The position numbers and the translations under genes are program-made. Below, one piece after another: positions 44,902-61,032 of a stretch of 64,000 nt of DNA; position 1 is the stretch's first letter; the number at the start of each line of letters is the position of its first letter. The notes under the pieces are model-generated. The model saw nothing but the letters and a program-made list of their open reading frames with translations, was not told the origin of the DNA and did not search any database. Source of the DNA: Pseudomonas saliphila (lineage in GTDB: Bacteria > Pseudomonadota > Gammaproteobacteria > Pseudomonadales > Pseudomonadaceae); contig NZ_VTVA01000014.1 in the NCBI RefSeq assembly GCF_008638345.1, positions 1 through 64,000 of the forward strand. Reading direction: 5' to 3'.

Positions 44902-45783
44902 TCAGCTCGCTTTGGTAACGGTCAGGCCTGAACGGCGCAGGGCAAGAGCAAAGGCATCGGCCAGGTTGGCCTTGGTGACGATGCCTTCGAGATCGAGCCC
45001 AAGATGTACTATGGTCTGAGCGATTTGCGGGCGTACGCCACTGATGATGCAATCAGCGCCCATCAGGCGGATGGCCGTCACGGTTTTCAGCAGGTGCTGG
45101 GCAACCAGCGTATCGACCGTCGGCACGCCAGTGATATCGATAATGGCAATGTCAGAACCGGTATCGACGATGCGCTGCAACAGCGACTCCATCACCACCT
45201 GAGTGCGCTGCGAATCCAGCGTGCCGATCATCGGCAGCGCCAGCACACCATCCCACAGTTTCACCACCGGCGTGGACAGCTCCAGCAGCTCTTCCTGCTG
45301 GCGCTTGATAACGGACTCTCGGGCTTTCTGGAAGGTACGAACGGTGTGCAGGCCCATCATATCCAGCAGCTCGGATACCAGCGTGATCTGGGTAACCAAA
45401 CTAGCAGGTGGCACAGATGTTTCGCGTTGTAGCAGGTCGAACAGCGGACGCTTCAGAGAAAATACGAACGTGGCGGTTTGCTGAGCATCAAGACCCTGTA
45501 AAGCCCGGCTATGGGACAAGGCTTCCAGAAACTCGCGCGTCCCGGCCCAGCCATTCGCACCCCAGTAATCGCCGCCCGACTCGACAACACCTTCGCTGAA
45601 CAGCTTCAGGAAGTCTGCGGTTTGCTTCTTGAGCTCATCCGCTCGTACACCCCTGACAGCTCCGCTCTCTTCCAGGGTCGCAAGCCATGCCGCTTGAATA
45701 GAGGATTGTTGCTCAATAAGCGCGTCGGTGATGCTTTGGTCAAATTGTGACATTCGTCCGGTCTCGTCTGGGAAGAAGTTCAT
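44902..45783 (-). CDS. rsbR: Stressosome sensor protein RsbR
   Basis: 293 residues. The N-terminal helical domain (about 15-150, RsbRD type) is the sensory turret. The C-terminal STAS domain (about 165-285) has the phospho-Thr regions ITGVPTVDTLVAQ and SGVRPQIAQTIVHLG. The signal sensed is unknown; no haem or flavin motif is evident. The start is either 45783 or the methionine at 45753, as neither has a strong ribosome-binding site. It is the first gene of a six-gene leftward operon. Confidence 0.9.
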   Translation of the reverse strand: MNFFPDETGRMSQFDQSITDALIEQQSSIQAAWLATLEESGAVRGVRADELKKQTADFLKLFSEGVVESGGDYWGANGWAGTREFLEALSHSRALQGLDAQQTATFVFSLKRPLFDLLQRETSVPPASLVTQITLVSELLDMMGLHTVRTFQKARESVIKRQQEELLELSTPVVKLWDGVLALPMIGTLDSQRTQVVMESLLQRIVDTGSDIAIIDITGVPTVDTLVAQHLLKTVTAIRLMGADCIISGVRPQIAQTIVHLGLDLEGIVTKANLADAFALALRRSGLTVTKAS

Positions 45784-46109
45784 CAGATGGTACCTGTTTC
45801 GAAGAATTTTTTACGATTTTCATGGCATCAGCGAATGAAACGCCCTCACCGCACGCGCGCTGGAACAGGCCGTCCCGGTTTAGGGACAGCGCGAACAGCC
45901 AGCGCCTCCTGCCGGCTGCCCACCAACAAGGTCTCACCGACATGACGATTATATTTCGCTCTCGAATCATTTTATAACGATTTGCGGGATTCGCAGTCTT
46001 GGATTATATATACGACGGGTTATATGAGACCTCTTCTATCTGTATAGTAATTACACATCTAAATTATATATTGAGCGGGACAGGCTCCCGCTCGCAAAGG
46101 GGACCGCAT
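45784..46109. promoter_or_regulatory. AT-rich divergent control region between rsbR and the ATP-grasp gene
   Basis: 326 bp. The part 45945-46072 is far richer in A and T than anything nearby, with runs such as GGATTATATATACGACGGG and CTAAATTATATATTGAG, and several possible -10 elements. Both divergent operons must start here. No small gene with a ribosome-binding site was found. A segment at 45856-45899 resembles 40144-40186. Confidence 0.55.
46073..46093 (+). other. Leader hairpin immediately upstream of the ATP-grasp gene
   Basis: GAGCGGGA and TCCCGCTC form a perfect 8-bp stem with loop CAGGC. It ends 16 bases before the ATG and just before the ribosome-binding site AAGGGG. It interrupts the AT-rich promoter region and would lie near the 5' end of the transcript, where it could affect message stability or translation. 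Confidence 0.55.
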
Positions 46110-47336
46110 ATGAAGAAGGATCCAACCAAGGGTTTTATTGCGCTGCTCGGCTGGGCACCCAACGCCGTTGAAGCCGCAGCCACCTTTGATCGTCGCTATG
46201 TAGTGGTCGCGCCCGAATGGGCTGAGGATTACTGCAAGGAACACGACATCCCCTATGTGGCCTGGAACTTCGAGCGGCTCAATGACCGTTCAATGGAGAT
46301 AGCTGAGACACTTAAAGATATGGGCGTTGACGTATCCATCCCATTGTTCGAAGAAACCGTGGAATGGGCCGGAGCTATCAACTCTGTTCTGTTGGACAAC
46401 CCCCGCCTGTTCGGCCAGTCGATGCTGATGCGTGACAAGTCCCTGATGAAGCGCCGTGCGCAGCTCGGTGGCATTCGCGTTGGCATTTTCGAGGAAGCCC
46501 ACGATCGCAGCGATGTGATCCGCTTTCTCAAGCGCGTCAACCAGACACTGCTCAAGCTCGATGGTGATCCGAACGACCCGATTCACGTCAAGGCTTTCGA
46601 CAAGGCAGGTTGCCTCGGTCACCGGGTCATCCGCACACCGGATGACGTGGATGCAATCCCCGACGAGGAGTTTCCATCCTTGATGGAGTCTCACCTGGAT
46701 GGCTGGGAATTCGCGGTCGAGGCCTGGGTTCACAATGGCAAGATACGCTTCCTGAATATTTCCGAGTATGTACGTCTGGGCTATTCGGTACACGTTCCTG
46801 CGTCACCCAAGCTTGAGGAATATCGTCCGCAGATCGTCAAGCAGATCGAGAAGTTGATCAAGACCTTCGACATCGAGTTCGGGATGATTCACCCCGAGTA
46901 TTTCGTGACCAGCGATGGCGAGATGTATTTTGGTGAAGTGGCCTACCGTCCACCAGGCTTCAAGGTATTCGAGCTCCTTGAGCGCGTTTATAAGGGTTTC
47001 AATGCCTACCACGCCAGCATGCTGGTATTCGATCCGAAATCCACCGAAGAGGAAGTTGAAGCCTACTTTCCCAAGGAAATCGAAGATGCTGATGGTTACG
47101 CGGGTTGCTTCGGTGTGTATCCGCGCCGTCGCGTGGTCAGCAAGCTCGAGATTCCGGCTGAAACCGAGGACCACCCCTATTTCGAGTCCCACGAGCTAAC
47201 CACACCGCTTGAGGAGATGGTAACCAAGCGCACCGCATTTGGGACGCATTGGGGCCTGATTTATTTCAAGGGTGACAACGCCGAAGAGATGCACAAGTTG
47301 CTCGCGCGTCAGGAAGAGCTGGACTTCTACGTATAG
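46110..47336 (+). CDS. ATP-grasp ligase divergent from the stressosome operon
   Basis: 408 residues. An N-terminal Rossmann-like region (FIALLGWAPNAVEAAATFDRRYVVVAPEW) precedes a normal-order ATP-grasp fold: KSLMK (about 112), lysine in HVKAFDKAG, then WEFAVEAWVHNGKIRFLNI and the metal-binding end GEMYFGEVAYRPPGF. The family ligates a carboxylate to an amine or thiol via an acyl-phosphate; the biotin carboxylase and D-Ala ligase relatives are distant. The ATG at 46110 has AAGGGG seven bases before it. The frame is open to 45999 without start signals. It is 59 bp upstream of an uncharacterised protein, with which it probably works. No substrate can be named. Confidence 0.78.
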   Translation: MKKDPTKGFIALLGWAPNAVEAAATFDRRYVVVAPEWAEDYCKEHDIPYVAWNFERLNDRSMEIAETLKDMGVDVSIPLFEETVEWAGAINSVLLDNPRLFGQSMLMRDKSLMKRRAQLGGIRVGIFEEAHDRSDVIRFLKRVNQTLLKLDGDPNDPIHVKAFDKAGCLGHRVIRTPDDVDAIPDEEFPSLMESHLDGWEFAVEAWVHNGKIRFLNISEYVRLGYSVHVPASPKLEEYRPQIVKQIEKLIKTFDIEFGMIHPEYFVTSDGEMYFGEVAYRPPGFKVFELLERVYKGFNAYHASMLVFDPKSTEEEVEAYFPKEIEDADGYAGCFGVYPRRRVVSKLEIPAETEDHPYFESHELTTPLEEMVTKRTAFGTHWGLIYFKGDNAEEMHKLLARQEELDFYV

Positions 47337-47395
47337 CGCTCAGCGCATCCGGTCCCTATCATGGGCGGCAATGAGAATGAGTAGGGAGTGTGTGC

Positions 47396-49417
47396 GTGGT
47401 TGAGCAGAATACGCAAAATCCGCCAGATGACGGCAAGCTTACGTTGTTGTTGTCCCGGTTTGACGAAGCCATTGAGCTGCTGGACCGCGCCCCGGAATTT
47501 GCCAAACCAGGCAAACTGGGCCGGGTGTTCGATACCGCGCGGCGGGTAATGATGGTGCCGGGTGGCTGTGCGCAGCTTGAATCGCGCGCGGCCATGCTGG
47601 AGTCCGCAGGGATTTTTGCCGGGTCTGACTGGGCCAGCCCGGAGACACTGGTGCCGGCCCTCACCCCCCTGACGCTCTCGAGCGCCGACCCCCATACCCT
47701 GGTGATTGAAGCGCTCAGCGAGCTCAGGCTGCTGGCGGTGGCGCGCGGTGACTTCGTTCATCCGGTCGTGTCTGCCGAACATGCACACCACTTCCTGACG
47801 CAGGTACTGGCAAGCAACCTTGCCCTGCTGTTCTCTCCCTTGAGTGAAGCCGAGCGTGAAACCCAGGGTAGTCTCGCCGAGTTGCCACGTAACCTGCTGC
47901 AGCACCTGGCCGAATCTATTGGCTACCAGCACGTTATCGACCAGTTGATTGGTGAGATCTGGCGCATCCTGCAACAACGGCCCATCCAGGTTGATCCGGT
48001 CAAACGGATGATTACCCAGATTGCACTGTGCCAGGCCAATCCCGACATTGATCTGGGGAACAGCGGCCAAGGCGCCGACCGTCTGGTCAGCAGTCTGTTC
48101 GGTCCTACGCATGCATGTCGAGAAGACCCGGGTATTGAAATATACCAGGAGCGTCTCGATTACATGGATCACGCCGCACTGCAAAGCGAAGCGACCGGTT
48201 TTGCCCGGGCCATGCACGACACCGGCCTGGCCTCGGCTTATCACGCCGTTTTGATGCGCCATCTGTACAACCAGGCGGAGCACCTGCTGGCCGAAGCCAT
48301 GGGGTTATCGGCAACCGGTAGAGACTGTTTGCTGTGTTATCGCGAGCTGGTCCTGGCACTGATCGACAAGGGTGTACATCCAGGCACCCCGCAGGCGATC
48401 TACGGCCTGGCCTTGATGCTCGAGCGCGGCATTCTGTTTCAATTGCCGGTGGCCCCCGCCATGTGGCGGCAACTGGGTTTACCGCTATCGGACTGGTCGC
48501 GGGAGCGGCTGGCCATGGCGTTCGGCACCGCCGTACCTGCTGAGGCACTTTTGCTGGAGGGCGTCCTGTGCATGCTGGGCCAGCCACTCGGCGTAGGTCA
48601 GGGCAACAACCCCACCTGCCAGTCTGCACGGGCACTGTCGATGTGGGCCTACAACGACCCCGATTACCTCCTGCAAATGGTGACCTGGGCGGCACGCGAT
48701 GACGAGATCATCATGCACTTCGAAGGCCAGCCAATTTCGTCACAGGAGAGCCTGAGCGGCGTGGCGACCACGTTGCCAATCGACCTGGATGCGGTTTCAC
48801 TGCTGGTAGTGCCGCATCTGGACCGTATTTACGCCGAAATGGGCCGGCGCTGTATTGGCCGGGAGGGCGACCCCCATCGCTGGGTCAATCCCGAGTTCCA
48901 TGGCTGGTGGGCGGGTCGCGGCTTCCGCTTGAATGTTGATGTCCCGACGGGCAATCTCGTTGATCTGGATGACTTTATCCGGCATTTCTATGCGGCTTAT
49001 CACCCTTATCACAATGGCAATCAGCCGCTGATCCATCCTCAACCGGCGGGCATCGCTGTTACCGACAGCGCTGCGCGCTTCATCGGCTGGCACGCAATCA
49101 CTATCTTGCGGGTCAGTCTGGATCAGACCGACGAGATGCGTCTGTATTTCTACAACCCGAACAATGACAGTGGGCAGAACTGGGGCGACGGTGTGGAAGT
49201 CAGTACTGCAGGCCAGGGTGAACGTTTCGGAGAAGCGTCACTGCCCTTCGCACAGTTTCTGTCCAGGCTGTACATTTTTCACTACGACCCGCTCGAGCAC
49301 GGCGAACCCGCATCGGTCACCCGCAAGGAGCTGGATGAAGTCATCGGCTATATCCAGCGCAGCTGGGGCGCCGGACGCATGCCAGATGGCCCCCTGGAGC
49401 CTCCTATCGCTGAATGA
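47396..49417 (+). CDS. Uncharacterised protein with a probable papain/C39-like C-terminal domain
   Basis: 673 residues, not recognised. There is no signal peptide. Residues 1-390 are mostly helical. In the C-terminal part, Cys408 sits in GQGNNPTCQSARAL (a Gln followed by a helix-starting Cys). His566 is in GWHAITILRV and Asn587 in LYFYNPNNDSG, 21 residues later. That order and the strand pattern around His and Asn are those of papain-like and C39-type thiol peptidases or amidases. The role is inferred from motifs only. GTG start at 47396 with GGGAG seven bases upstream; a GTG at 47390 is too near it. It is probably co-transcribed with the ATP-grasp gene. Confidence 0.6.
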   Translation: MVEQNTQNPPDDGKLTLLLSRFDEAIELLDRAPEFAKPGKLGRVFDTARRVMMVPGGCAQLESRAAMLESAGIFAGSDWASPETLVPALTPLTLSSADPHTLVIEALSELRLLAVARGDFVHPVVSAEHAHHFLTQVLASNLALLFSPLSEAERETQGSLAELPRNLLQHLAESIGYQHVIDQLIGEIWRILQQRPIQVDPVKRMITQIALCQANPDIDLGNSGQGADRLVSSLFGPTHACREDPGIEIYQERLDYMDHAALQSEATGFARAMHDTGLASAYHAVLMRHLYNQAEHLLAEAMGLSATGRDCLLCYRELVLALIDKGVHPGTPQAIYGLALMLERGILFQLPVAPAMWRQLGLPLSDWSRERLAMAFGTAVPAEALLLEGVLCMLGQPLGVGQGNNPTCQSARALSMWAYNDPDYLLQMVTWAARDDEIIMHFEGQPISSQESLSGVATTLPIDLDAVSLLVVPHLDRIYAEMGRRCIGREGDPHRWVNPEFHGWWAGRGFRLNVDVPTGNLVDLDDFIRHFYAAYHPYHNGNQPLIHPQPAGIAVTDSAARFIGWHAITILRVSLDQTDEMRLYFYNPNNDSGQNWGDGVEVSTAGQGERFGEASLPFAQFLSRLYIFHYDPLEHGEPASVTRKELDEVIGYIQRSWGAGRMPDGPLEPPIAE

Positions 49418-49514: not shown

Positions 49515-50408
49515 TCAGCGCGCCCGATCAGGCCTCAATCGGGGGGCCATGAGCGCTATCGCAACGCCACTCAGCACCACCCCGGATGTGATGATGAGCC
49601 GCATGGACATGGGCTCGCTCAGCAGCAAAACGCCGCCGAGCGCGGCAAGAATGGGCACGCTGAGCTGGAGCGTTGCCGCCTGCTGAGCGCTGATCTGCTT
49701 CACTACGCCATACCAGACGGCATAGCCTGCGCCCGAGGCCAGCACGCCCGACCCCAGGGCGTATAACGAACCCTCCAAGCTAGTATATAGCTGCCCAACG
49801 ACACTTAGAATCAGGCCCATGAAAAGTACCAGCGGCCAGCTGCGGATGAAATTACCGGCGGTATCTGCCAGCGGATTGACAGAACCTCTGCCAATCAGTG
49901 AGTAGGCACCCCACGCGACGCCAGAAACAATCATCACCAGGGCACTGACCAATGGCGGGGCTTGCGCACCGGGCAGCAATAAAGCGACCAGGCCGGCGAA
50001 AGCCATCAGCATGCCCAGCAGCACCTGGGCCTGAAAGCGCTCACCCTGTACCCAGGCAAATGCAAACATCGCGATCTGCACAGACCCGAACAGAATCAGC
50101 GCGCCGACACCTGCTCCCAGCTGAATGTAGGCAATGGAAAACAGGTAGGCGTATACGAACAGCGATATGCCGCCTTTCCAGCTCCCCCCGAGCGGTCGCG
50201 CAGGCCTGCGCAGCTTGATCAACAGCAGCAGGAACAGTCCCCCGCTGACCAGTCGGATAGTCGTAAAGGTACCGGGGTCAACGTCCCCGTTCATCAGCGC
50301 CAATCGGCAAAAAATCGAGTTCGCGGCGAACGCCACAACACTGAACATCGCAGGCCAGACCCAGTGCTTCCTATTACATCGAGCCAACAGGCTGGTTCCA
50401 TTTCTCAT
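49515..50408 (-). CDS. EamA/DMT-family transporter
   Basis: 297 residues with ten hydrophobic helices in two EamA halves (SIFCRLALMNGDVDPGTFTTIRL; second half from about 155, GVAWGAYSLIGRG). Such inner-membrane carriers export metabolites or amino acids; the substrate is unknown. Parts of this gene are found again in a shortened, dead copy at 53.1 kb. It is a single gene ending at a likely terminator. Confidence 0.88.
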   Translation of the reverse strand: MRNGTSLLARCNRKHWVWPAMFSVVAFAANSIFCRLALMNGDVDPGTFTTIRLVSGGLFLLLLIKLRRPARPLGGSWKGGISLFVYAYLFSIAYIQLGAGVGALILFGSVQIAMFAFAWVQGERFQAQVLLGMLMAFAGLVALLLPGAQAPPLVSALVMIVSGVAWGAYSLIGRGSVNPLADTAGNFIRSWPLVLFMGLILSVVGQLYTSLEGSLYALGSGVLASGAGYAVWYGVVKQISAQQAATLQLSVPILAALGGVLLLSEPMSMRLIITSGVVLSGVAIALMAPRLRPDRAR

Positions 50409-50789: not shown

Positions 50790-51734
50790 TCACACACGAT
50801 CGCTCGAGTTACACCTTTCGCTCGCTCCCCCTTCGGCAGACCCTGCGTGATAGCGCGTATCAGCCAGCTCGTGATTGGTAGCGCGAAGATGAATACGCCG
50901 CTGTTGCAAACCGATCATCAAAAGCGGCACCACGATCATCGCGCTGCCGGCCAGGAACCACATATCTGGTACTTCAGCGAAGAATACCCAGCCAATGATC
51001 ACCGCCCAGATCAGCCCGGTGTACTCCGCGCTGGTGACCTGATTGGCATCCACATGTTTGTAAGCCATCAGGACGCACACGTTATAGGCAAGGATGAATA
51101 TTGAAGATCCCACCGCGCTGACGAATACCGCATTGCTCCATGCAGCGCCTTCCCACAGCGCCAGGGCCAGGCATAGCGGAATGATCATCAAGTAGTTGAG
51201 AAAGAGCTTGTGCGCCGTGGACTGCTCGCGGGGCAACTTGCGAACCAGCACTGCGTTAATCGCCAGCGCAGCAGCCGATCCCAGAGCGCCTAATGCCGCC
51301 CAACTGAAGTCGACAGGGCGCAATATCACCAGGATGCCGGCGAACCCAAAGATAACGGCAGCAAGGCTGAGCTTGGTCAAACGCTCGCCAAAGAAGAGCA
51401 CCGACAAAACCATCACCAGGATCGGCGCGACATAAAACACCGCATTAGCAGTAGCCAGTGGCAAAGCGATGAGCGCATACACCATGCAAATGATACCGAC
51501 CAGGTGCACATGCGCTCGGATGAAATGCAGCCGCGCTCCTTCAAACGCTTTGCTGGTATCGATGTGGCGCCAGAATGGCAACAGCACCAATAGCGTAATC
51601 ACGCAGCGCAAGAACGCATATTGAAATACGGGTGCGCCCGCCTCGAGAAACTTGATGAACACATCGGAGATCAGTGCCAGGGCATTGCCGATGACCAACA
51701 ACGCAATAGCGCTGTTAACTGTTTTTCCTGCCAT
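50790..51734 (-). CDS. EamA/DMT-family transporter
   Basis: 314 residues, ten hydrophobic helices, two EamA halves (FLRCVITLLVLLPFW; second half VDANQVTSAEYTGLIWAVIIGW). The ATG at 51734 has GAGGG five bases upstream; the frame continues to 51821 without support. The last ~20 residues (AGSAEGGASERCNSSDRV) look unlike the family and may be sequence gained when the original stop was lost. It is distinct from the first EamA protein. It lies downstream of the glycerate kinase on the same strand. Confidence 0.86.
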   Translation of the reverse strand: MAGKTVNSAIALLVIGNALALISDVFIKFLEAGAPVFQYAFLRCVITLLVLLPFWRHIDTSKAFEGARLHFIRAHVHLVGIICMVYALIALPLATANAVFYVAPILVMVLSVLFFGERLTKLSLAAVIFGFAGILVILRPVDFSWAALGALGSAAALAINAVLVRKLPREQSTAHKLFLNYLMIIPLCLALALWEGAAWSNAVFVSAVGSSIFILAYNVCVLMAYKHVDANQVTSAEYTGLIWAVIIGWVFFAEVPDMWFLAGSAMIVVPLLMIGLQQRRIHLRATNHELADTRYHAGSAEGGASERCNSSDRV

Positions 51735-51849
51735 ATCGCCCTCTGGGAACCTCGTAAAACCTGCAAAGAGTCTAAGGTTTGCCGGATAGCGAGAGAACTG
51801 ATATTTAACTGAGCGTCGCAAGCATCAGGTGCTCAGCGTTGAGGACGCC

Positions 51850-53423: not shown

Positions 53424-55409
53424 TTGAATACGGAAAATCATTCGCAAACCGCCGCCTTCCTCTGGTCCGTTGCGGACCTGCTGCGGGGCGACTTCAAGCA
53501 GTCACAGTACGGCAGAATCATCCTGCCCTTTACCCTGTTGCGGCGCATGGAATGTGTATTGGAGCCAACCAAACAAGCAGTTCTGGCGGAAGCCAAGGCT
53601 CAGGTTGGGCGCCCTGATCTGGTGCGCGAACAGATGCTGCTGCGCGCCGCCGGTGGGTTGCAGTTCTTCAATGCCTCTCCCCTGTCCCTTGGCACCCTGT
53701 CTGACACTCAGACGGCCGATGACCTGATGAGCTATGTGCAATCTTTCAGCAAGGATGCGCGGGAAATCTTCGAGCACTTTCACTTTGAGGACTACGTTCA
53801 GCAGCTGGCTTCGGCTGACCTGCTGTATCAGGTCGTGCAGCGCTTTGCGGCCACTGATCTGAGCCCTTCGCGCATCAGCAACTTCGGCATGGGGATCATC
53901 TTCGAAGAACTGATCCGCAAGTTCGCCGAAAGCTCGAATGAAACCGCCGGAGAACACTTCACCCCCCGCGACATCGTCCACCTCACCACCTCGCTGGTGA
54001 TTACCGGGCAGGACGACAAGCTCAAACCCAACAGCATCTTGACCATCTATGACCCGACTGCTGGCACGGGCGGTTTCCTGTCCGAGGGCGACGAATACAT
54101 TCAGTCCATCAGCGACAAGGTAACGGTCTCGGTCTTCGGCCAGGAGCTGAACCCCGAGTCCTACGCCATCTGCAAGGCAGACATGCTGATCAAGGGCCAG
54201 ACGGTCGGCAACATCAAGCTCGGCAACACCCTGTCGGATGATCAACTGACTGGCCGGGAAAACCACTTCGACTTCATGCTCAGCAATCCGCCCTTTGGCG
54301 TCGAGTGGAAGAAGGTGCAGAAGCAGATCACCGACGAATACAGCCAGAAAGGCTTTAACGGCCGCTTCGGCCCGGGCCTGCCGAGAGTGTCCGATGGCTC
54401 GCTGCTGTTTCTGCTGCACCTGGTTAGCAAGATGCGCGAGCCACGCGACGGAGGCTCACGCATTGGCATCATTCTCAACGGATCGCCGCTGTTCACTGGC
54501 GGTGCCGGATCTGGCGAGTCGGAGATTCGTCGCTACCTGCTGCAGAATGATCTGGTTGAAGCCATCATCGCCCTGCCGACGGACATGTTCTACAACACCG
54601 GCATCGCCACCTATGTGTGGATTCTTTCCAACCACAAGGTCGACGCGCGCAAGGGCAAGGTGCAGTTGATCGACGGCAGCCAACATTCTGCCAAGATGCG
54701 CAAATCCCTTGGCAGCAAGCGCCAGTACATCACGGAAGAGCAGATCGACGAGCTGGTGCGCCTATATGGCCGCTTCGAGCAAACGCCGCAGAGCAAGATC
54801 TTCCCCATCGACACCTTCGGCTACCGCCGTATCACCGTCGAGCGCCCGTTGCGCCTGAACTTCCAGACCAGTGCCGAGCGCATCGAAAAGGTACTGCAGG
54901 AAAAGCCCATTCAGAAGCTCGAACCCGCCGCCCAGGAACGTCTGGTCGGCGCCTTACAGGCCATGGATGCCAGCGTACTGCACCGCAACCGGGAGCAGTT
55001 CAGCAAGCTTCTGAAGAAGACCCTGAACAATCACGACGTATTCTCCTCCGCAGCCGAGCTCAAGGCGCTGCTCAATGCCTTGAGTGAGCGCGATCCCGAG
55101 GCCGACATCTGCATGGCCAAGGGCAAGCCCGAGGCCGACACCGGCCTGCGCGACAATGAGAACGTGCCGCTGGGCGAATCGATATATGACTACTTCGAGC
55201 GTGAAGTAAAACCCCACGTCCCGGATGCCTGGATCGACGAGAGCAAGACCGATGCACAGGATGGTGAGGTCGGCATTGTCGGCTTCGAGATTCCCTTCAA
55301 CCGGCACTTCTATGTCTTCAAGCCACCGCGCCCGCTGGACGAAATTGACCGCGACCTGAAAGCCTGCACCGACCGCATCAAGCAGATGATCGAGGGGTTG
55401 TCGGCATGA
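53424..55409 (+). CDS. hsdM: Type I restriction-modification methyltransferase subunit HsdM
   Basis: 661 residues from a TTG start with AGGAG eight bases before it. The N-terminal HsdM helical domain (about 5-140) is followed by the N6-adenine methyltransferase domain: SAM-binding [10 protein letters not shown] (from Asp210) and catalytic NPPF (Asn288). It continues to about residue 470, with a long C-terminal extension rich in charged helices. It methylates adenine in the site chosen by HsdS, protecting host DNA. The stop overlaps the next gene by four bases. Confidence 0.95.
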
Positions 55410-56428
55410 GCGCGCCAACCCCAACAGGCAAGTCGACCGAGGAGCAATTCGGGGAGGTATTGGCTCTGATCCAGGGTGCCCGTCAGTGTGCTGTGCAGGC
55501 AGTAAATACACAGCTGATCGAGCTTTATTGGCAGGTCGGTGCCTATATCAGCCGCAAACTGGAACAGGCTGAATGGGGTGATGCAGTGGTCAGCGAACTG
55601 GCGGGGTACCTGGCCCGCACCCAGCCAGGGTTGAAAGGCTTTACCCGACGTAATCTGTTCCGCATGCGCCAGTTTTACGAAACCTATCGAAGTGAAGAGA
55701 AAGTGTCAGCACTGCTGACACAATTACCCTGGACCCACAATCTAGCCATTCTCAGTCAGAGCAAACGCCCGGAAGAGCGCGAGTTCTATCTGCGCATGGC
55801 AATTCAGGAAAAGTGGTCAAGCCGCGAGCTGGAACGCCAGTTCAAGGCCGCTCTGTTCGAACGCAGCGTTACCCGGCCGACCAAAGTCTCAGCAGCGCTG
55901 AGACAAACTCACCCTGCCGCGCTGGAGGTATTCCGCGACGCCTATATGGTGGAATTTCTTCACCTGCCGGACAGCCATGCCGAGGCCGATCTCCACCTGG
56001 GCCTGCTGACACGCCTCAGGGATTTCCTGATCGAGCTGGGCCGCGATTTTTGTTTTGTTGGCTCTGAATATCCGCTGCAAGTGGGCGGGCGCGATTTTGC
56101 CTTGGACCTGCTGTTCTTCCACCGCGGCCTCAATTGTCTGGTGGCCATCGAGCTCAAGGTCGGCCGCTTCGAGCCGGAATATCTGGGCAAGCTCGACTTC
56201 TACCTGGAAGCGTTGGATCGCGATAGCCGTAAACCCCACGAAAACCCCGCCATCGGCGTGCTGCTCTGCGCCAGCAAGGACGATGAAGTGGTCGAGTACG
56301 CCCTCAACCGCAGCCTGTCACCCGCATTGATTGCCGAATACCAGACCCAGCTGCCAGACAAGGCACTGCTGCAGGCCAAATTGCATGAATTTTATGCGTT
56401 GAATACTGCAGGGGGAGATGAGCAATGA
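55406..56428 (+). CDS. DUF1016/YhcG PD-(D/E)XK nuclease-fold protein inside the hsd operon
   Basis: 340 residues. Residues about 10-165 are the DUF1016 N-terminal helical region ([46 protein letters not shown]). Residues about 175-335 are the YhcG C-terminal nuclease-like domain with Asp234 (in DLLFFHRGL) and Glu249-x-Lys251 (VAIELKVG), a complete PD-(D/E)XK site. It overlaps hsdM and hsdS by four bases each, so it is an integral member of the operon. The activity in type I systems is unproved; an accessory restriction or anti-phage nuclease is likely. Confidence 0.88.
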
Positions 56429-57828
56429 GCGGGTTCAAGCCGTACCCGGCGTATAAGGATTCGAGGGTGGAGTGGTTGGGAGCAGTGCCGGAGCATTGGT
56501 CGTTGCATAAGCTTAAATATATCGCTCGATTTTCGGGAGGCGGCACACCAAGCAGAGAAAGCCTGGCCTATTGGAACGGCGATATTCCATGGGTATCCCC
56601 AAAAGACATGAAGGTCGAAGTAATCGTCGGCGCCGAAGAAAATATCACTGCAGAGGGTTTGCAAAACAGCACCACCTCTCTCGTACCATCTGGCGGAATC
56701 CTTATTGTTGTGCGGTCTGGCATCTTAAAACACACGATTCCTGTCGCAGTGAACAATATCGAAGTAGCATTGAATCAAGACATGAAAGCACTGAGGTTCA
56801 ATCCTAAGCTGGCACTTTACAGTTTCTTTCTGCGCTGGGTTCAAGGGTTTAACAAACAGCTTCTGCATGTTTGGTTAAAGCAAGGTGCTACGGTCGAAAG
56901 TATCGAGCAAGAATATCTTGCAGACACTACCGTCCCCATGCCAGGCATTGATGAACAGAGAATGATTGTTACTTTTCTCAACCACGAAACCGCCCGCATC
57001 GACGCGCTGATCGCAGAGCAGCAGCGCCTGATCGAACTGCTCAAGGAAAAGCGCCAGGCCATAATCTCCCACGTCGTCACCAAAGGCCTCGACCCGACCG
57101 TACCGATGAAAGACTCAGGGATGGAGTGGGTGGGTGAGGTGCCGGTGCATTGGGCAGTCAAGCGACTCAAACAGCTTGTATTGGATGCAGGAGGTATCCA
57201 GATGGGGCCGTTTGGCGGAATGTTGGTTGAACTTGATGATTCTGATACGGGGTACAAGGTTTACGGCCAGGAAAACACTATTTCAGGTGATTTCTCTTCT
57301 GGAAATAGGTGGATTCCAGAGCATCGGTATATCTCGCTCTCAAATTACCATCTTGAAGTTGGGGATATCGTCCTGACGAGGAAAGGAAGCTTAGGCAACT
57401 GTCGAAGGGTTTCGCTGCTACCACAAGCGGGAATTATTGATTCGGACACAATCCGCGTCAGAGTTCAGGATCAAACGATGGATCCGGACTATCTCGAACT
57501 TCTTCTGCATGAGTCAGACTATATCTCTACTCAGCTGAACCTTGTGAAGCGAGGGGCGATCCTGTCAGGGCTAAACTCCGAGATAATTGCGAATTTGGTG
57601 ATTATTGTCCCTCCCCGCGATGCGCAGGAAGAGTTAGTGCTAGAAATCAAAGCAGATTCATCGAAATTCAATCAAGGAATATCCGATTGCGAGTTTGCGG
57701 TTGGACTACTTCGAGAACGACGCTCCGCCCTGATCTCCGCCGCCGTCACCGGCAAAATCGACGTACGCGACTGGCATCCACCCGCCGGCTCGCAAGCCCC
57801 CGTACAAGAATTGGAAGAGGCCGTATAA
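56425..57828 (+). CDS. hsdS: Type I restriction-modification specificity subunit HsdS
   Basis: 467 residues with the usual two target-recognition domains (about 15-170 and 235-410), each introduced by a similar phrase (EWLGAVPEHW and EWVGEVPVHW). Helical spacers follow each (ETARIDALIAEQQRLIELLKEKRQAI, quoted in part; and the C-terminal LLRERRSALISAAVTGKIDV). The two domains read the two halves of the split DNA site. The recognition domains are visibly richer in A and T than the spacers and flanking genes, as expected for parts exchanged by recombination. Confidence 0.94.
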   Translation: MSGFKPYPAYKDSRVEWLGAVPEHWSLHKLKYIARFSGGGTPSRESLAYWNGDIPWVSPKDMKVEVIVGAEENITAEGLQNSTTSLVPSGGILIVVRSGILKHTIPVAVNNIEVALNQDMKALRFNPKLALYSFFLRWVQGFNKQLLHVWLKQGATVESIEQEYLADTTVPMPGIDEQRMIVTFLNHETARIDALIAEQQRLIELLKEKRQAIISHVVTKGLDPTVPMKDSGMEWVGEVPVHWAVKRLKQLVLDAGGIQMGPFGGMLVELDDSDTGYKVYGQENTISGDFSSGNRWIPEHRYISLSNYHLEVGDIVLTRKGSLGNCRRVSLLPQAGIIDSDTIRVRVQDQTMDPDYLELLLHESDYISTQLNLVKRGAILSGLNSEIIANLVIIVPPRDAQEELVLEIKADSSKFNQGISDCEFAVGLLRERRSALISAAVTGKIDVRDWHPPAGSQAPVQELEEAV

Positions 57829-60800
57829 ATGGCGGACAGCAAGGAAGCTCAGTTTCAGCAGGACATCATCACTGCAATGACCGCCCAGGGCTGGCTTACC
57901 GGCCCGGCCAACGGCTACGACCGGCGCACGGCACTCTACACCGAGGATCTGCTTGGCTACTTCAAACAAGCCTGGCCGGAGCGTTGGGACAAGTTCCGCA
58001 AGTCCAACCCCAAAGACCCAGAGACGGTTCTGATCAAGAAGGTGGTACGCGAGCTGGAGCAAAGCGGCACGCTGGATGTACTGCGCCATGGCTTCAAGGT
58101 GCCGGGGGTCAAGATCGACCTGTGCAGTTTCAAGCCGGATCACGGCATGAACCCCGATACCCTCGCCCGCTATCAGGCCAACCGCCTGCGGGTTGTGCCG
58201 GAAGTGTCCTACTCGCCCCACGCCAGCGAAAAAGGCTCGGCCACAGGCTACAACCCCAGGCTGGATCTGGTGCTGTTCGTCAACGGCATCCCGGTCGCAA
58301 CGCTGGAGCTGAAAAGCGAATTCAAGCAATCGGTGGAAAACGCCAAACGCCAGTACCGCTACGATCGCCCACCGATGGACCCGGTAACACGCAAACCTGA
58401 GCCGCTGCTGACCTTCAAGCGCGGCGCGCTGGTGCACTTTGCCGTGGGCCAGAGCGAGGTGGCCATGACCACCAGGCTGGTCGGCAAGGACACCTTCTTC
58501 CTGCCCTTCAACCAGGGCACCGAGGAAGGCGGCGCCGGCAATCCGATGCCGGTGGACGAGAGCCAGTACGCGACGGGGTATCTGTGGAACAGGCTCTTTC
58601 AGCCAGACGCCTGGCTCAAGGTGCTGGGCCGCTTTCTGCATCTGGAAAAGCAGACCAGCGAGGGCTTCGATGGCAAGCCGGTCACCAAGGAAACGTTGAT
58701 CTTCCCGCGTTTTCAGCAGTGGGACGTGGTCAATAAACTGATCGAGACGACCCACATCGAAGGGCCGGGGCAGCGTTACCTGATCCAGCACAGCGCCGGC
58801 TCGGGCAAGTCGAATTCCATCGCCTGGACGGCCCATCAACTGGCCGCCATGTATGATGCGCAGGGCAACAAACTGTTCAATTCGGTCATTGTAATTACCG
58901 ACCGCACGGTTCTCGATAAGCAGCTGCAGGACACTATCTACCAGTTCGAGCATGCCCAGGGCGTGGTGCAGCCAATTACCCGCGATGCGGGCAACAAGAG
59001 CAAATCCGAGCAACTGGCCGAGGCACTGCTAGAGCAAACCCGCATCATCATTGTCACCATCCAAACCTTTCCGGCACTATTCGCTGCGTTGGACAAACAC
59101 CCCAAGCTCGCCGCCGGGCGTTACGCGGTGATCGCCGACGAGGCGCACTCCTCCCAGACCGGTTCCTCCGCCAGCAAGCTCAAGCAGATACTCGGCAGCG
59201 ATACGCCGGAAACTGACGACGAGGAGGTATCGCTCAGCGCCGAGGAGCTGCTCGATGCGGCCGTTGCGGCACGCGGCCCGAATGAGCGCATCAGCTACTA
59301 CGCTTTTACCGCCACGCCCAAGGCCAAGACGCTGGAGCTGTTCGGCCGGCCACCCGATCCGACATCGCCGCCCAGCGCGGACAACAAGCCAGAACCCTTT
59401 CACCTGTACTCCATGCGCCAGGCCATCGAGGAGAAATTCATTCTCGATGTGCTGCGCAACTACACCACCTACAGCACCGCCTGGAAGATCGCCCACCCCG
59501 ACGCCGATGACGAAGAGGTCGACAGCAAGAAGGCCCGCATGAAACTGGCGCGCTGGGTGCGCCTGCATCCTTACAACATCAGCCAGAAGGTCGAGGTCAT
59601 CGTCGAGCATTTCCGCGCCAACATTGCGCACCTGCTTGGCGGTCAGGCGAAGGCCATGGTTGTAACCAGCAGTCGCCAGGAAGCCGTGCGGTATCAAATG
59701 GCAATGAAGGCCTACGTCACGCAGCAGGGTTATAAGGACGTGCACCCCTTGGTGGCATTCTCCGGCAGCGTGCTCCCCGACGAGGTGATCCCGACGGAAG
59801 TGACGGAGAACAGTAGCCTGCTCAACACTGGTCTGAACAACCGCGACCTGGCTGAAGCCTTCGATACCCAGGACTTCAACGTAATGATCGCCGCCAACAA
59901 GTATCAGACCGGCTTTGATCAACCCAAGCTCTGCGCCATGTACGTGGACAAGAAACTGCAGGGCGTGGATTGCGTGCAGACCCTGTCTCGCCTGAACCGG
60001 ACCTTCGGCGACAGCAAGCAGACGTTCATCCTGGACTTCTTCAACGACGCGAAGGACATCCTCGAAGCCTTTCTGCCCTACTACGCCAAGGCCGAACTCA
60101 ACGACGTGACCGATCCGCAGATTCTCTACGATCTGCAGAAAAAACTGGATGACGAGTGCATCTATTACCGCGCCGAGGTCGAAGCCTTCGCGCTGGCCTT
60201 CTTCAACCCCAAGGCGGCCGCGTCCAAGTTGATTTTTCACTGCTACTTAGCCAAGGACCGCTTCGCCAAGCGCTACAAGTTCAATCAGGAGGCGCGTCAG
60301 GACGCGCTGGCGTACAAGCGCAACGCAGAGGCAAACGGCGACAGTGATGGCCTGAAGAAAGCCGAGCACGACCTGAAGGCAGCGGGTGAACAGCTCGACC
60401 AGTTGACGCTGTTTCGCAAGAACCTGCAGAGCTTCGTGCGGCTGTATGAATTCCTGTCGCAAATCGTCCCCTACGAAGACCGTGATCTGGAAGCGCTATG
60501 CGTATTCGCGCGCGGCCTGTATCCGCTGCTGAGCGTCGATCAGCTTGAGCGTGAAGATGTGGACGTAGGTGAACTCCAGTTAACGCATTACCGCCTGGCA
60601 AAGCAGGCAGAGCATCAACTGCGACTGGATGAAGAACACGGCGAATGGGGCCTGGACCCGGCCACCGCGATAGGCTCGGGCAAGCCACATGACCCGGAGA
60701 AAAAGCGCCTGTCAGAAATTATCGATGCCTTGAACGACCTGTTCGGCGCCGAAGTCAGCGATGACGATCAGCTGCAGTTCCTCACCGGCATCGCCCAGCG

Positions 60801-61032
60801 CATAAGTCGGCAGGACGACGTCATGGCTCAGCTGGACAACCACAGCAATGAGCAAGTCATGCACGGGCTCTTTCCCAAGCGCGTCGTGGACACCGTGCTG
60901 GACGCCATGACCGACCATGAAAAGCTGTCACTGGACGTGCTGGACAACGAGATCAGCGGCCGCAAGTTTGCGTTGCTGGTGTTGAAGATGCTCAAGACCT
61001 TGTCTGCAAGCGCTGGGGGGCAACGGGTGTAG
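57829..61032 (+). CDS. hsdR: Type I restriction enzyme motor/nuclease subunit HsdR
   Basis: 1067 residues. The N-terminal PD-(D/E)XK nuclease domain has Asp146 and Glu160-x-Lys162 (TLELKSEF). The SF2 translocase has Walker A SAGSGKS (Lys327), DEAH box ADEAHSSQTG (Asp437), and later motifs YAFTATPKAKTLELFG, ANKYQTGFDQPKL and LSRLNRTF. A C-terminal helical region (about 760-1067) contacts the methyltransferase. It pumps and cleaves unmethylated foreign DNA. It begins directly after the hsdS stop codon. The gene is intact, so the system should be active. Confidence 0.95.
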   Translation: MADSKEAQFQQDIITAMTAQGWLTGPANGYDRRTALYTEDLLGYFKQAWPERWDKFRKSNPKDPETVLIKKVVRELEQSGTLDVLRHGFKVPGVKIDLCSFKPDHGMNPDTLARYQANRLRVVPEVSYSPHASEKGSATGYNPRLDLVLFVNGIPVATLELKSEFKQSVENAKRQYRYDRPPMDPVTRKPEPLLTFKRGALVHFAVGQSEVAMTTRLVGKDTFFLPFNQGTEEGGAGNPMPVDESQYATGYLWNRLFQPDAWLKVLGRFLHLEKQTSEGFDGKPVTKETLIFPRFQQWDVVNKLIETTHIEGPGQRYLIQHSAGSGKSNSIAWTAHQLAAMYDAQGNKLFNSVIVITDRTVLDKQLQDTIYQFEHAQGVVQPITRDAGNKSKSEQLAEALLEQTRIIIVTIQTFPALFAALDKHPKLAAGRYAVIADEAHSSQTGSSASKLKQILGSDTPETDDEEVSLSAEELLDAAVAARGPNERISYYAFTATPKAKTLELFGRPPDPTSPPSADNKPEPFHLYSMRQAIEEKFILDVLRNYTTYSTAWKIAHPDADDEEVDSKKARMKLARWVRLHPYNISQKVEVIVEHFRANIAHLLGGQAKAMVVTSSRQEAVRYQMAMKAYVTQQGYKDVHPLVAFSGSVLPDEVIPTEVTENSSLLNTGLNNRDLAEAFDTQDFNVMIAANKYQTGFDQPKLCAMYVDKKLQGVDCVQTLSRLNRTFGDSKQTFILDFFNDAKDILEAFLPYYAKAELNDVTDPQILYDLQKKLDDECIYYRAEVEAFALAFFNPKAAASKLIFHCYLAKDRFAKRYKFNQEARQDALAYKRNAEANGDSDGLKKAEHDLKAAGEQLDQLTLFRKNLQSFVRLYEFLSQIVPYEDRDLEALCVFARGLYPLLSVDQLEREDVDVGELQLTHYRLAKQAEHQLRLDEEHGEWGLDPATAIGSGKPHDPEKKRLSEIIDALNDLFGAEVSDDDQLQFLTGIAQRISRQDDVMAQLDNHSNEQVMHGLFPKRVVDTVLDAMTDHEKLSLDVLDNEISGRKFALLVLKMLKTLSASAGGQRV

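What the first reader, a model, noticed from the sequence alone, without database searches (positions are those of the whole stretch)
46110..49417. ATP-grasp ligase paired with a 673-residue Cys-His-Asn protein, divergent from a stressosome operon
The sequence shows an ATP-grasp gene followed by an unrecognised gene. The second product has Cys408 (GQGNNPTC), His566 (GWHAITIL) and Asn587 (LYFYNPNN) in the order and spacing of papain/C39-type enzymes. A ligase next to a possible peptidase or amidase suggests a make-and-cut pair acting on a peptide or amide, perhaps a stress-linked protein or metabolite modification. No transporter or obvious precursor peptide is nearby. The link to the rsb genes is by shared intergenic region only.
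Basis: partly seen in the sequence, partly recalled or inferred. Interest (0 to 1): 0.72.

Follow-up and report, generated by a model that had tools for sequence, protein, structure and literature searches.

The report
Obligate ligase and papain-like enzyme pair
Two neighbouring genes encode an amide-bond-making enzyme and an uncharacterised, probably papain-like enzyme that occur together in salt-adapted bacteria, sometimes right beside the gene for ectoine synthase, so they may belong to an undescribed branch of salt-stress metabolism.

Summary
An ATP-grasp ligase (46110-47336) precedes a 675-residue protein ("CHN", 47390-49417) without Pfam, NCBIfam or PDB relatives. Pairing is strict: the ligase is in 49 of 49 CHN-positive genomes and 0 of 31 ectoine-synthase-positive, CHN-negative controls. 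The stressosome link was seen nowhere else (0 of 80, 0 of 73 and 0 of 10 loci).
New context: every CHN-positive genome searched for it carries ectoine synthase (13 of 13 in a class sample where 53 of 369 have it). ectC lies within about 2 kb of ligase, CHN or HDAC gene in 8 of 49 genomes, five times as the only ectC found. A distinct HDAC-type deacetylase occurs in 35 of 49 positives and 0 of 31 controls; an acetyltransferase gene precedes it in 11 of 40 loci.
Best reading: a ligase plus papain-like amidase (or acyltransferase) acting on an amide-linked metabolite of ectoine-type osmoadaptation. Substrate and direction are unknown; the fold is supported, not proven.

The parts
46110..47336 (+). 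ATP-grasp carboxylate-amine ligase, 408 aa; 191 of 408 columns at least 99% identical in 140 distinct homologues; HPE263 and GE276 conserved (metal-ligand role recalled, not tested); last four residues D[FY]Y[VIL] in 139 of 140
   Evidence: PF13535, 25.7 bits, just under the cut-off of 27; best PDB match 3VOT L-amino acid ligase, E 5e-4
47390..49417 (+). CHN protein, 675 aa: helical N-terminal part (about 14-397) and papain-like C-terminal domain (about 398-665); alternative start GTG 47396
   Evidence: no family match
48599..48601 (+). codon of Gln404, putative oxyanion-hole glutamine (Q-x5-C)
   Evidence: identical in 154 of 154
48617..48619 (+). codon of Cys410, putative nucleophile at the N-terminus of a predicted helix
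   Evidence: 154 of 154; helix 411-422, 34-46 in domain numbering
49091..49093 (+). codon of His568, putative general base close to the start of a predicted strand
   Evidence: 154 of 154
49154..49156 (+). codon of Asn589, directly after the next predicted strand
   Evidence: 154 of 154
45784..46109 (.). intergenic region shared with the divergent rsbR-like gene; presumably holds the promoter of the pair; no sigma-70 consensus found; the rsb neighbourhood itself is not part of the conserved system

Best explanation
A two-enzyme amide-bond module. The ATP-grasp protein activates a carboxylate with ATP and joins it to an amine (inferred from fold and active-site residues). CHN is a papain-like thiol enzyme whose Cys410/His568/Asn589 form and resolve an acyl-enzyme, most likely hydrolysing the ligase product or close relatives of it. 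The substrate is most likely a small amino-acid or diamine-type metabolite tied to ectoine-based osmoadaptation. In most of the genomes tested a class II HDAC-type deacetylase, in some loci with a GNAT acetyltransferase, would work on the same pool, and in some the ectoine synthase gene sits in the cluster. Shown: pairing, active-site conservation, co-occurrence and clustering. Inferred: fold, reaction direction, substrate.
For: ATP-grasp in 49 of 49 CHN+ and 0 of 31 EctC+ CHN- genomes at E<=1e-5, and in 24 of 24 CHN+ and 0 of 18 CHN- genomes of a first chosen set; adjacency in 74 of 80 close loci and 53 of 73 diverse loci. Active-site residues 154 of 154. Papain-like second look. EctC in 13 of 13 CHN+ versus 53 of 369 in the same class sample (hypergeometric 2.8e-12). 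EctC within about 2 kb of ligase, CHN or HDAC in 8 of 49 genomes, of the ligase itself in 6, one of these a remnant; about 0.1 expected for the ligase alone, P 1e-9 for 6, and 1e-9 for 8 if the expectation is tripled for CHN and HDAC. In G435, G699, G845, G1017 and G942 it is the only ectC found, with ectA on another contig or far away. HDAC subfamily 35 of 49 versus 0 of 31; HDAC near CHN or the ligase in 7 of 74 stretches.
Against: No biochemistry. EctC co-occurrence may only mark salt-adapted lineages, and control genomes come from other families. 41 of the 49 genomes show no ectC beside the system. HDAC is absent from the window's own genome and 13 other CHN+ genomes. The window's pair has neither ectC nor HDAC beside it; its genome's ectC lies on another contig, 1.3 kb from its ectA match. 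Catalytic-domain models are weak (pLDDT block means 26-88; Z at most 4.8). CHN copies with no ligase in the fetched stretch (20 of 73 loci) are not simply explained by a one-to-one make-and-cut cycle. A helical N-terminal half would also suit a protein substrate.
Confidence: 0.42

Rival explanations
1. Writer and eraser of a protein modification: the ATP-grasp enzyme adds an amino acid or peptide to a protein end or side chain and CHN removes it, as RimK and RimB do for a ribosomal protein; GNAT and HDAC are a second writer-eraser pair.
For: Helical-repeat-like N-terminal half of CHN (Z below 8, so only a common arrangement); GNAT directly before the HDAC in 11 of 40 HDAC loci; Peptidase_Mx (PF15887, tested on one member) near HDAC or ligase in 8 loci. 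RimK/RimB is a published ATP-grasp plus protease pair (PMC12239564, passages).
Against: ectC adjacency (8 of 49 genomes) points to small molecules. No match to RimK-type Pfam models. RimB is an aspartic protease, CHN a presumed cysteine enzyme.
Confidence: 0.2
2. Sequential biosynthesis: the ligase makes an activated or amide-linked intermediate and CHN is an acyl- or peptidyl-transferase (as BtrH or phytochelatin synthase are), so both make one final product.
For: Papain-like enzymes include the acyltransferase BtrH and phytochelatin synthase (PMC10318531, passages). Strict co-occurrence of both genes. Several CHN copies per ligase in some genomes (G070: five full CHN and two ligases) fit several acceptors for one donor.
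Against: No carrier protein gene was noticed in the ORF lists, which is not a systematic test. Hydrolysis is the commoner reaction of the fold (recalled).
Confidence: 0.2
3. Polyamine conjugation: the ligase couples a polyamine to a carboxylate and CHN cleaves it, an independent version of glutathionylspermidine synthetase/amidase.
For: CHN after genes of the PAD_porph and CN-hydrolase families, read as agmatine deiminase and N-carbamoylputrescine amidase (L158), after an ABC set read by eye as putrescine type (L184), and ligase-CHN after an ABC set read by eye as spermidine/putrescine type (L139); recurrent HDAC-type amidohydrolase, a fold with polyamine deacetylases.
Against: Three of 73 loci, and such transporters are common; no control was run. 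The position of the HDAC10 gatekeeper Glu (recalled) does not look like Glu in the alignment.
Confidence: 0.1
4. The pair is an output arm of the neighbouring stressosome (rsb) operon.
For: Divergent genes share a 326-bp intergenic region in the window.
Against: No rsb match in the 80 loci (67 of the 75 with a ligase hit reach at least 4 kb upstream of it), in the 73 diverse loci, or in 10 loci of the same genus, the nearest relative (92% identical CHN) included.
Confidence: 0.03

Closest known systems
L-amino acid ligases of the ATP-grasp fold (BL00235, PDB 3VOT; 4WD3)
   Same: Nearest solved relatives of the ligase (E 5e-4 and 0.011); similar length.
   Different: Very remote; PF13535 just below the cut-off; I recall no papain-like partner for the known enzymes.
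Papain-like cysteine peptidase superfamily (PepC/bleomycin hydrolase, calpain, cathepsin B, staphopain)
   Same: Q-x5-C, then His, then Asn, all invariant; Cys at a helix start, His close to a strand start, Asn after the next strand; structural second look dominated by them.
   Different: No sequence match; Z at most 4.8; helical N-terminal half.
RimK/RimB and RloC/RloA (ATP-grasp plus protease, Pseudomonas)
   Same: ATP-grasp ligase with a protease gene partner; mutants lacking all three RloA proteases fail under hypoosmotic conditions (PMC12239564, passages).
   Different: Their proteases are retropepsin-type aspartic enzymes; the Rlo system includes a membrane protein; no RimK-type Pfam match here.
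Glutathionylspermidine synthetase/amidase (recalled)
   Same: ATP-grasp-type ligase plus papain-like (CHAP) amidase acting on the same amide.
   Different: One fused protein of other families; no Pfam match to them here.
Stand-alone (orphan) ectC genes
   Same: In G836, G1050 and G930 a second EctC gene, away from ectA, sits in this gene cluster; properties and function of solitary EctC proteins are called unresolved (PMC5924519, passages).
   Different: The passages read mention neither an ATP-grasp nor a papain-like partner; the rest of that paper was not read.

Membership tests
ATP-grasp superfamily | ATP-grasp domain recognisable by profile, with conserved putative active-site residues | tested here: met
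   PF13535 E 9.6e-6, 25.7 bits against a cut-off of 27, so the curated cut-off is narrowly missed; E263, E276, R280 at least 99% identical in 140 sequences; PDB L-amino acid ligase E 5e-4
L-amino acid ligase | ATP-dependent joining of two free amino acids | not testable with these tools
   needs an enzyme assay
Papain-like cysteine peptidase superfamily | Catalytic order Gln, Cys, His, Asn conserved in the family | tested here: met
   154 of 154 for each of Q404, C410, H568, N589; 27 of 27 in A2
Papain-like cysteine peptidase superfamily | Papain fold with the residues in contact | tested here: inconclusive
   mean pLDDT 52 for the domain model; no Foldseek match at E<0.1; VIA-align Z 3.2-4.8 with 45 of 50 rows papain-type by title; distances could not be measured
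C39 bacteriocin-processing peptidases | Peptidase domain of an ABC exporter | tested here: not met
   no transporter domain matched in the protein. ABC ATPase genes do recur in flanks (29 of 80 Halomonas-type loci about 5 kb away; 4 diverse loci) but read by eye as importers; precursor peptides were not searched for
RimK/RimB | RimK-type ligase with a retropepsin-type protease | tested here: not met
   no such Pfam match for either protein at E<=1
Glutathionylspermidine synthetase/amidase | GSP_synth-type ligase fused to a CHAP amidase | tested here: not met
   two separate genes, no such Pfam match at E<=1
Stressosome output gene | Conserved neighbourhood with rsb genes | tested here: not met
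   0 of 80, 0 of 73 and 0 of 10 other loci

The most novel reading that the evidence does not exclude
An undescribed osmoadaptation pathway: the ATP-grasp ligase, one or more papain-like CHN enzymes, a dedicated HDAC/GNAT deacetylation-acetylation pair and an ectoine synthase (including orphan ectC copies) together make, cyclise and recycle a new amide-type compatible solute derived from diaminobutyrate, a diamine or ectoine, which would give orphan ectC genes a function.
Probability: 0.25. Interest if true: 0.82.

Novelty: new variant of a known kind. Interest (0 to 1): 0.6.

Why it matters
Two conserved protein families, one of them without any match in the family libraries searched, are strict partners across mainly salt-adapted Gammaproteobacteria, a group used industrially for ectoine. 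If the ectoine link holds, there is an unrecognised enzyme system next to a well-studied osmolyte pathway, and the open question of what orphan EctC proteins do becomes testable by following their new neighbours.

Tried and rejected
Family look-ups: Pfam, NCBIfam and PDB by single sequence, PDB by profile and Pfam for 27 members gave nothing usable for CHN (best Pfam E 0.011 in one member, best PDB E 0.063; taken as chance). Plasmids (tblastn): one Halomonas megaplasmid. Viral contigs: none.

Structure: the full-length model has a good helical N-terminus but a poor catalytic domain; Foldseek gave nothing below E 0.8. A domain-only model was no better overall (pLDDT 52; Foldseek best E 0.12). 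The second look on the full model listed mostly helical-repeat and other helical proteins, Z at most 6.9, so the N-terminus is called only helical-repeat-like.

Context leads not used as main evidence: MscK-like channel (by eye) and other neighbours in Halomonas look like shared synteny; KAS III, radical SAM, GCS2-like and AstE-like neighbours are confined to a few genomes; sugar-type ABC genes (by eye) in L143 and L147; polyamine genes in 3 loci kept only as a rival.

Literature: searches listed no paper whose title or abstract start concerns this pair. The 2009 amidoligase survey that would be the nearest discussion is not held, so a mention there cannot be excluded.

Limits: the HDAC subfamily threshold (E<=2e-96, at least 49% identity) was chosen after seeing the gap; its Fisher value 1.8e-11 and the ligase value 7e-23 ignore phylogeny. 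The 49 positives and 31 controls are subsets (80-handle limit): controls are 31 of the 40 EctC+ CHN- genomes of the class sample; positives are 12 of 13 of the class sample, 38 of 52 of the order sample (two shared) and G016. The first ligase test used 42 chosen genomes. G424, counted as CHN+, has only a CHN piece at a contig end. One locus (L027) was dropped from the domain alignment because its stretch held a stop.
Full report
What is there. The ATP-grasp gene runs from 46110 to 47336 and the second gene from 47390 to 49417, both on the plus strand, 53-59 bp apart with no plus-strand terminator-like site listed between them. The divergent rsb-type genes start at 45783.

The second protein. 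No usable Pfam, NCBIfam or PDB match was found for it. A genome scan found at least 588 relatives and kept the best 80, from Halomonas and related genera, Halopseudomonas, Ectothiorhodospiraceae, Guyparkeria, a Saccharospirillum-labelled bin and others. Divergent members fall to about 40% identity. In 154 aligned members (the window, 80 loci and 73 diverse loci; one ligase-only locus was skipped; close relatives not thinned) Gln404, Cys410, His568 and Asn589 are identical in all; the other eight cysteines are not constant.

Fold. Two predictions were run, with only window and sequences as the tool requires. Both place Cys410 at the start of a helix, His568 close to the start of a strand and Asn589 right after the next strand. 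Confidence in this domain is low. Foldseek found nothing significant. The structural second look at the domain model listed papain-type cysteine peptidases in 45 of 50 rows by my reading of the titles, with Z 3.2 to 4.8, below the level the tool calls distinctive. With the invariant residues this makes a papain-like enzyme likely (my estimate 85%), not shown. The N-terminal half is helical and resembles helical repeats only in a general way.

The ligase. Its nearest solved relatives are L-amino acid ligases. It is extremely conserved: 191 of 408 columns are at least 99% identical in 140 distinct sequences, and 139 of 140 end in D[FY]Y followed by V, I or L.

Pairing. The ligase lies upstream on the same strand in 74 of 80 close loci; in 73 diverse CHN loci it is within 1.5 kb in 53 (43 same strand, 10 opposite) and not found in the stretch in 20. 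Several of those 20 are extra CHN copies: one genome (G070) has five full CHN copies, a sixth fragment and two ligases. At genome level the ligase was found in 24 of 24 CHN-positive and 0 of 18 CHN-negative genomes of a first chosen set, then in 49 of 49 positives and 0 of 31 ectoine-synthase-positive negatives.

Stressosome. No rsb-type gene was matched in the 80 loci (of the 75 with a ligase hit, 67 hold at least 4 kb upstream of it), in the diverse loci or in 10 further loci of the same genus, including the nearest relative with a 92% identical CHN. The shared intergenic region is a local accident or a recent arrangement.

Ectoine. EctC was found in 60 of 60 genomes of a mixed set; there the window's own genus is uninformative because every member searched carries it, CHN or not. 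In one class sample all 13 CHN-positive genomes carry EctC against 53 of 369 overall (hypergeometric 2.8e-12). This could reflect salt-adapted habitat alone. Physical linkage is harder to explain that way: ectC lies within about 2 kb of the ligase, CHN or HDAC in 8 of the 49 CHN-positive genomes: G435 (ligase-CHN-ectC, L129), G699 (CHN-HDAC-ligase-ectC, L136), G836 (ectC-ligase-CHN, L142), G1050 (ectC divergent from CHN-ligase, L159), G845 (ectC-GNAT-HDAC, ligase converging, L203), G930 (ectC-ligase-GNAT-HDAC, L205), G1017 (ectC divergent from ligase, L230) and G942 (ectC beside a ligase remnant, L231). In 6 of the 8 it is within 2 kb of the ligase or its remnant; about 0.1 would be expected (P 1e-9). 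In G435, G699, G845, G1017 and G942 it is the only ectC found, with ectA elsewhere; G435 is only 75% complete. In G836, G1050 and G930 it is a second copy. Against the link: 41 of the 49 genomes show no such proximity, and the window genome's own ectC lies on another contig, 1.3 kb from its ectA match.

HDAC and GNAT. A subfamily of class II HDAC-type amidohydrolases with zinc-site motifs that look intact (motif reading recalled) is present in 35 of 49 CHN-positive genomes and 0 of 31 controls, with a clear gap to other HDAC homologues; it is absent from the window's genome. It lies near CHN or the ligase in 7 of the 74 stretches L117-L190. In 11 of 40 loci that hold this HDAC a GNAT acetyltransferase gene directly precedes it, and a Peptidase_Mx gene lies near HDAC or ligase in 8 loci.

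Interpretation. Shown here: a strictly paired ATP-grasp ligase and a protein with a papain-like invariant active site, associated with ectoine synthase and, in most genomes tested, a distinct deacetylase. Inferred: that the ligase forms and CHN cleaves or transfers an amide, and that the compound belongs to osmoadaptation. I prefer a small-molecule substrate because of ectC. A RimK/RimB-like protein modification (PMC12239564, passages), a BtrH-like or phytochelatin-synthase-like transferase role (PMC10318531, passages) and polyamine conjugation remain open.

Known or new. Ligase-plus-peptidase pairs are a known kind; this one uses other families and a new partner set. The function of solitary ectC genes is called unresolved (PMC5924519, passages). 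The H. elongata ectoine genome paper has no occurrence of ATP-grasp or papain in its text (PMC3187862, term search). My literature searches listed no paper on this pair, but the 2009 amidoligase survey could not be read.

Noticed in passing
window 47336 (end of the ligase) and homologues: The ligase C-terminus is nearly invariant (D[FY]Y[VIL] as the last four residues in 139 of 140 distinct sequences), unusual for a protein tail; it may dock to CHN or fold over the active site.
   Followed up: partly
L119, L124, L126, L127, L155, L156, L158, L184: Some genomes carry several CHN copies without a neighbouring ligase, in varied settings (PAD_porph and CN-hydrolase genes, putrescine-type ABC genes by eye, GCS2-like ligase, fatty acid desaturase, KAS III), as if CHN specificity had diversified.
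   Followed up: partly
L203, L205, L206, L216, L219, L222, L224, L225, L227, L228, L155: A GNAT acetyltransferase gene directly precedes the HDAC-subfamily gene: a possible acetylation/deacetylation pair of its own.
   Followed up: partly
L194, L195, L206, L212, L215, L219, L224, L226: A Peptidase_Mx (PF15887, confirmed by Pfam for L206) gene recurs beside the HDAC or the second-type ligase.
   Followed up: partly
L231 6482-6885; L073 7658-7846; L147 6776-6925; L160 5854-6146: Short ligase remnants beside ectC or CHN, suggesting repeated local loss of a ligase copy; the genomes of L231, L147 and L160 keep a full copy elsewhere.
   Followed up: no
window 49515-50408 and 50790-51821 (-): Two EamA-family transporter genes converge on the pair; not matched beside it in 80 loci or in 10 of the same genus.
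   Followed up: partly
window 53424-61032 (+): A run of large ORFs that reads like a type I restriction-modification set (first product resembles an N6 DNA methylase by eye; not searched).
   Followed up: no
L205 2213-2923: A sirtuin-like gene (by eye) precedes the ectC-ligase-GNAT-HDAC cluster.
   Followed up: no
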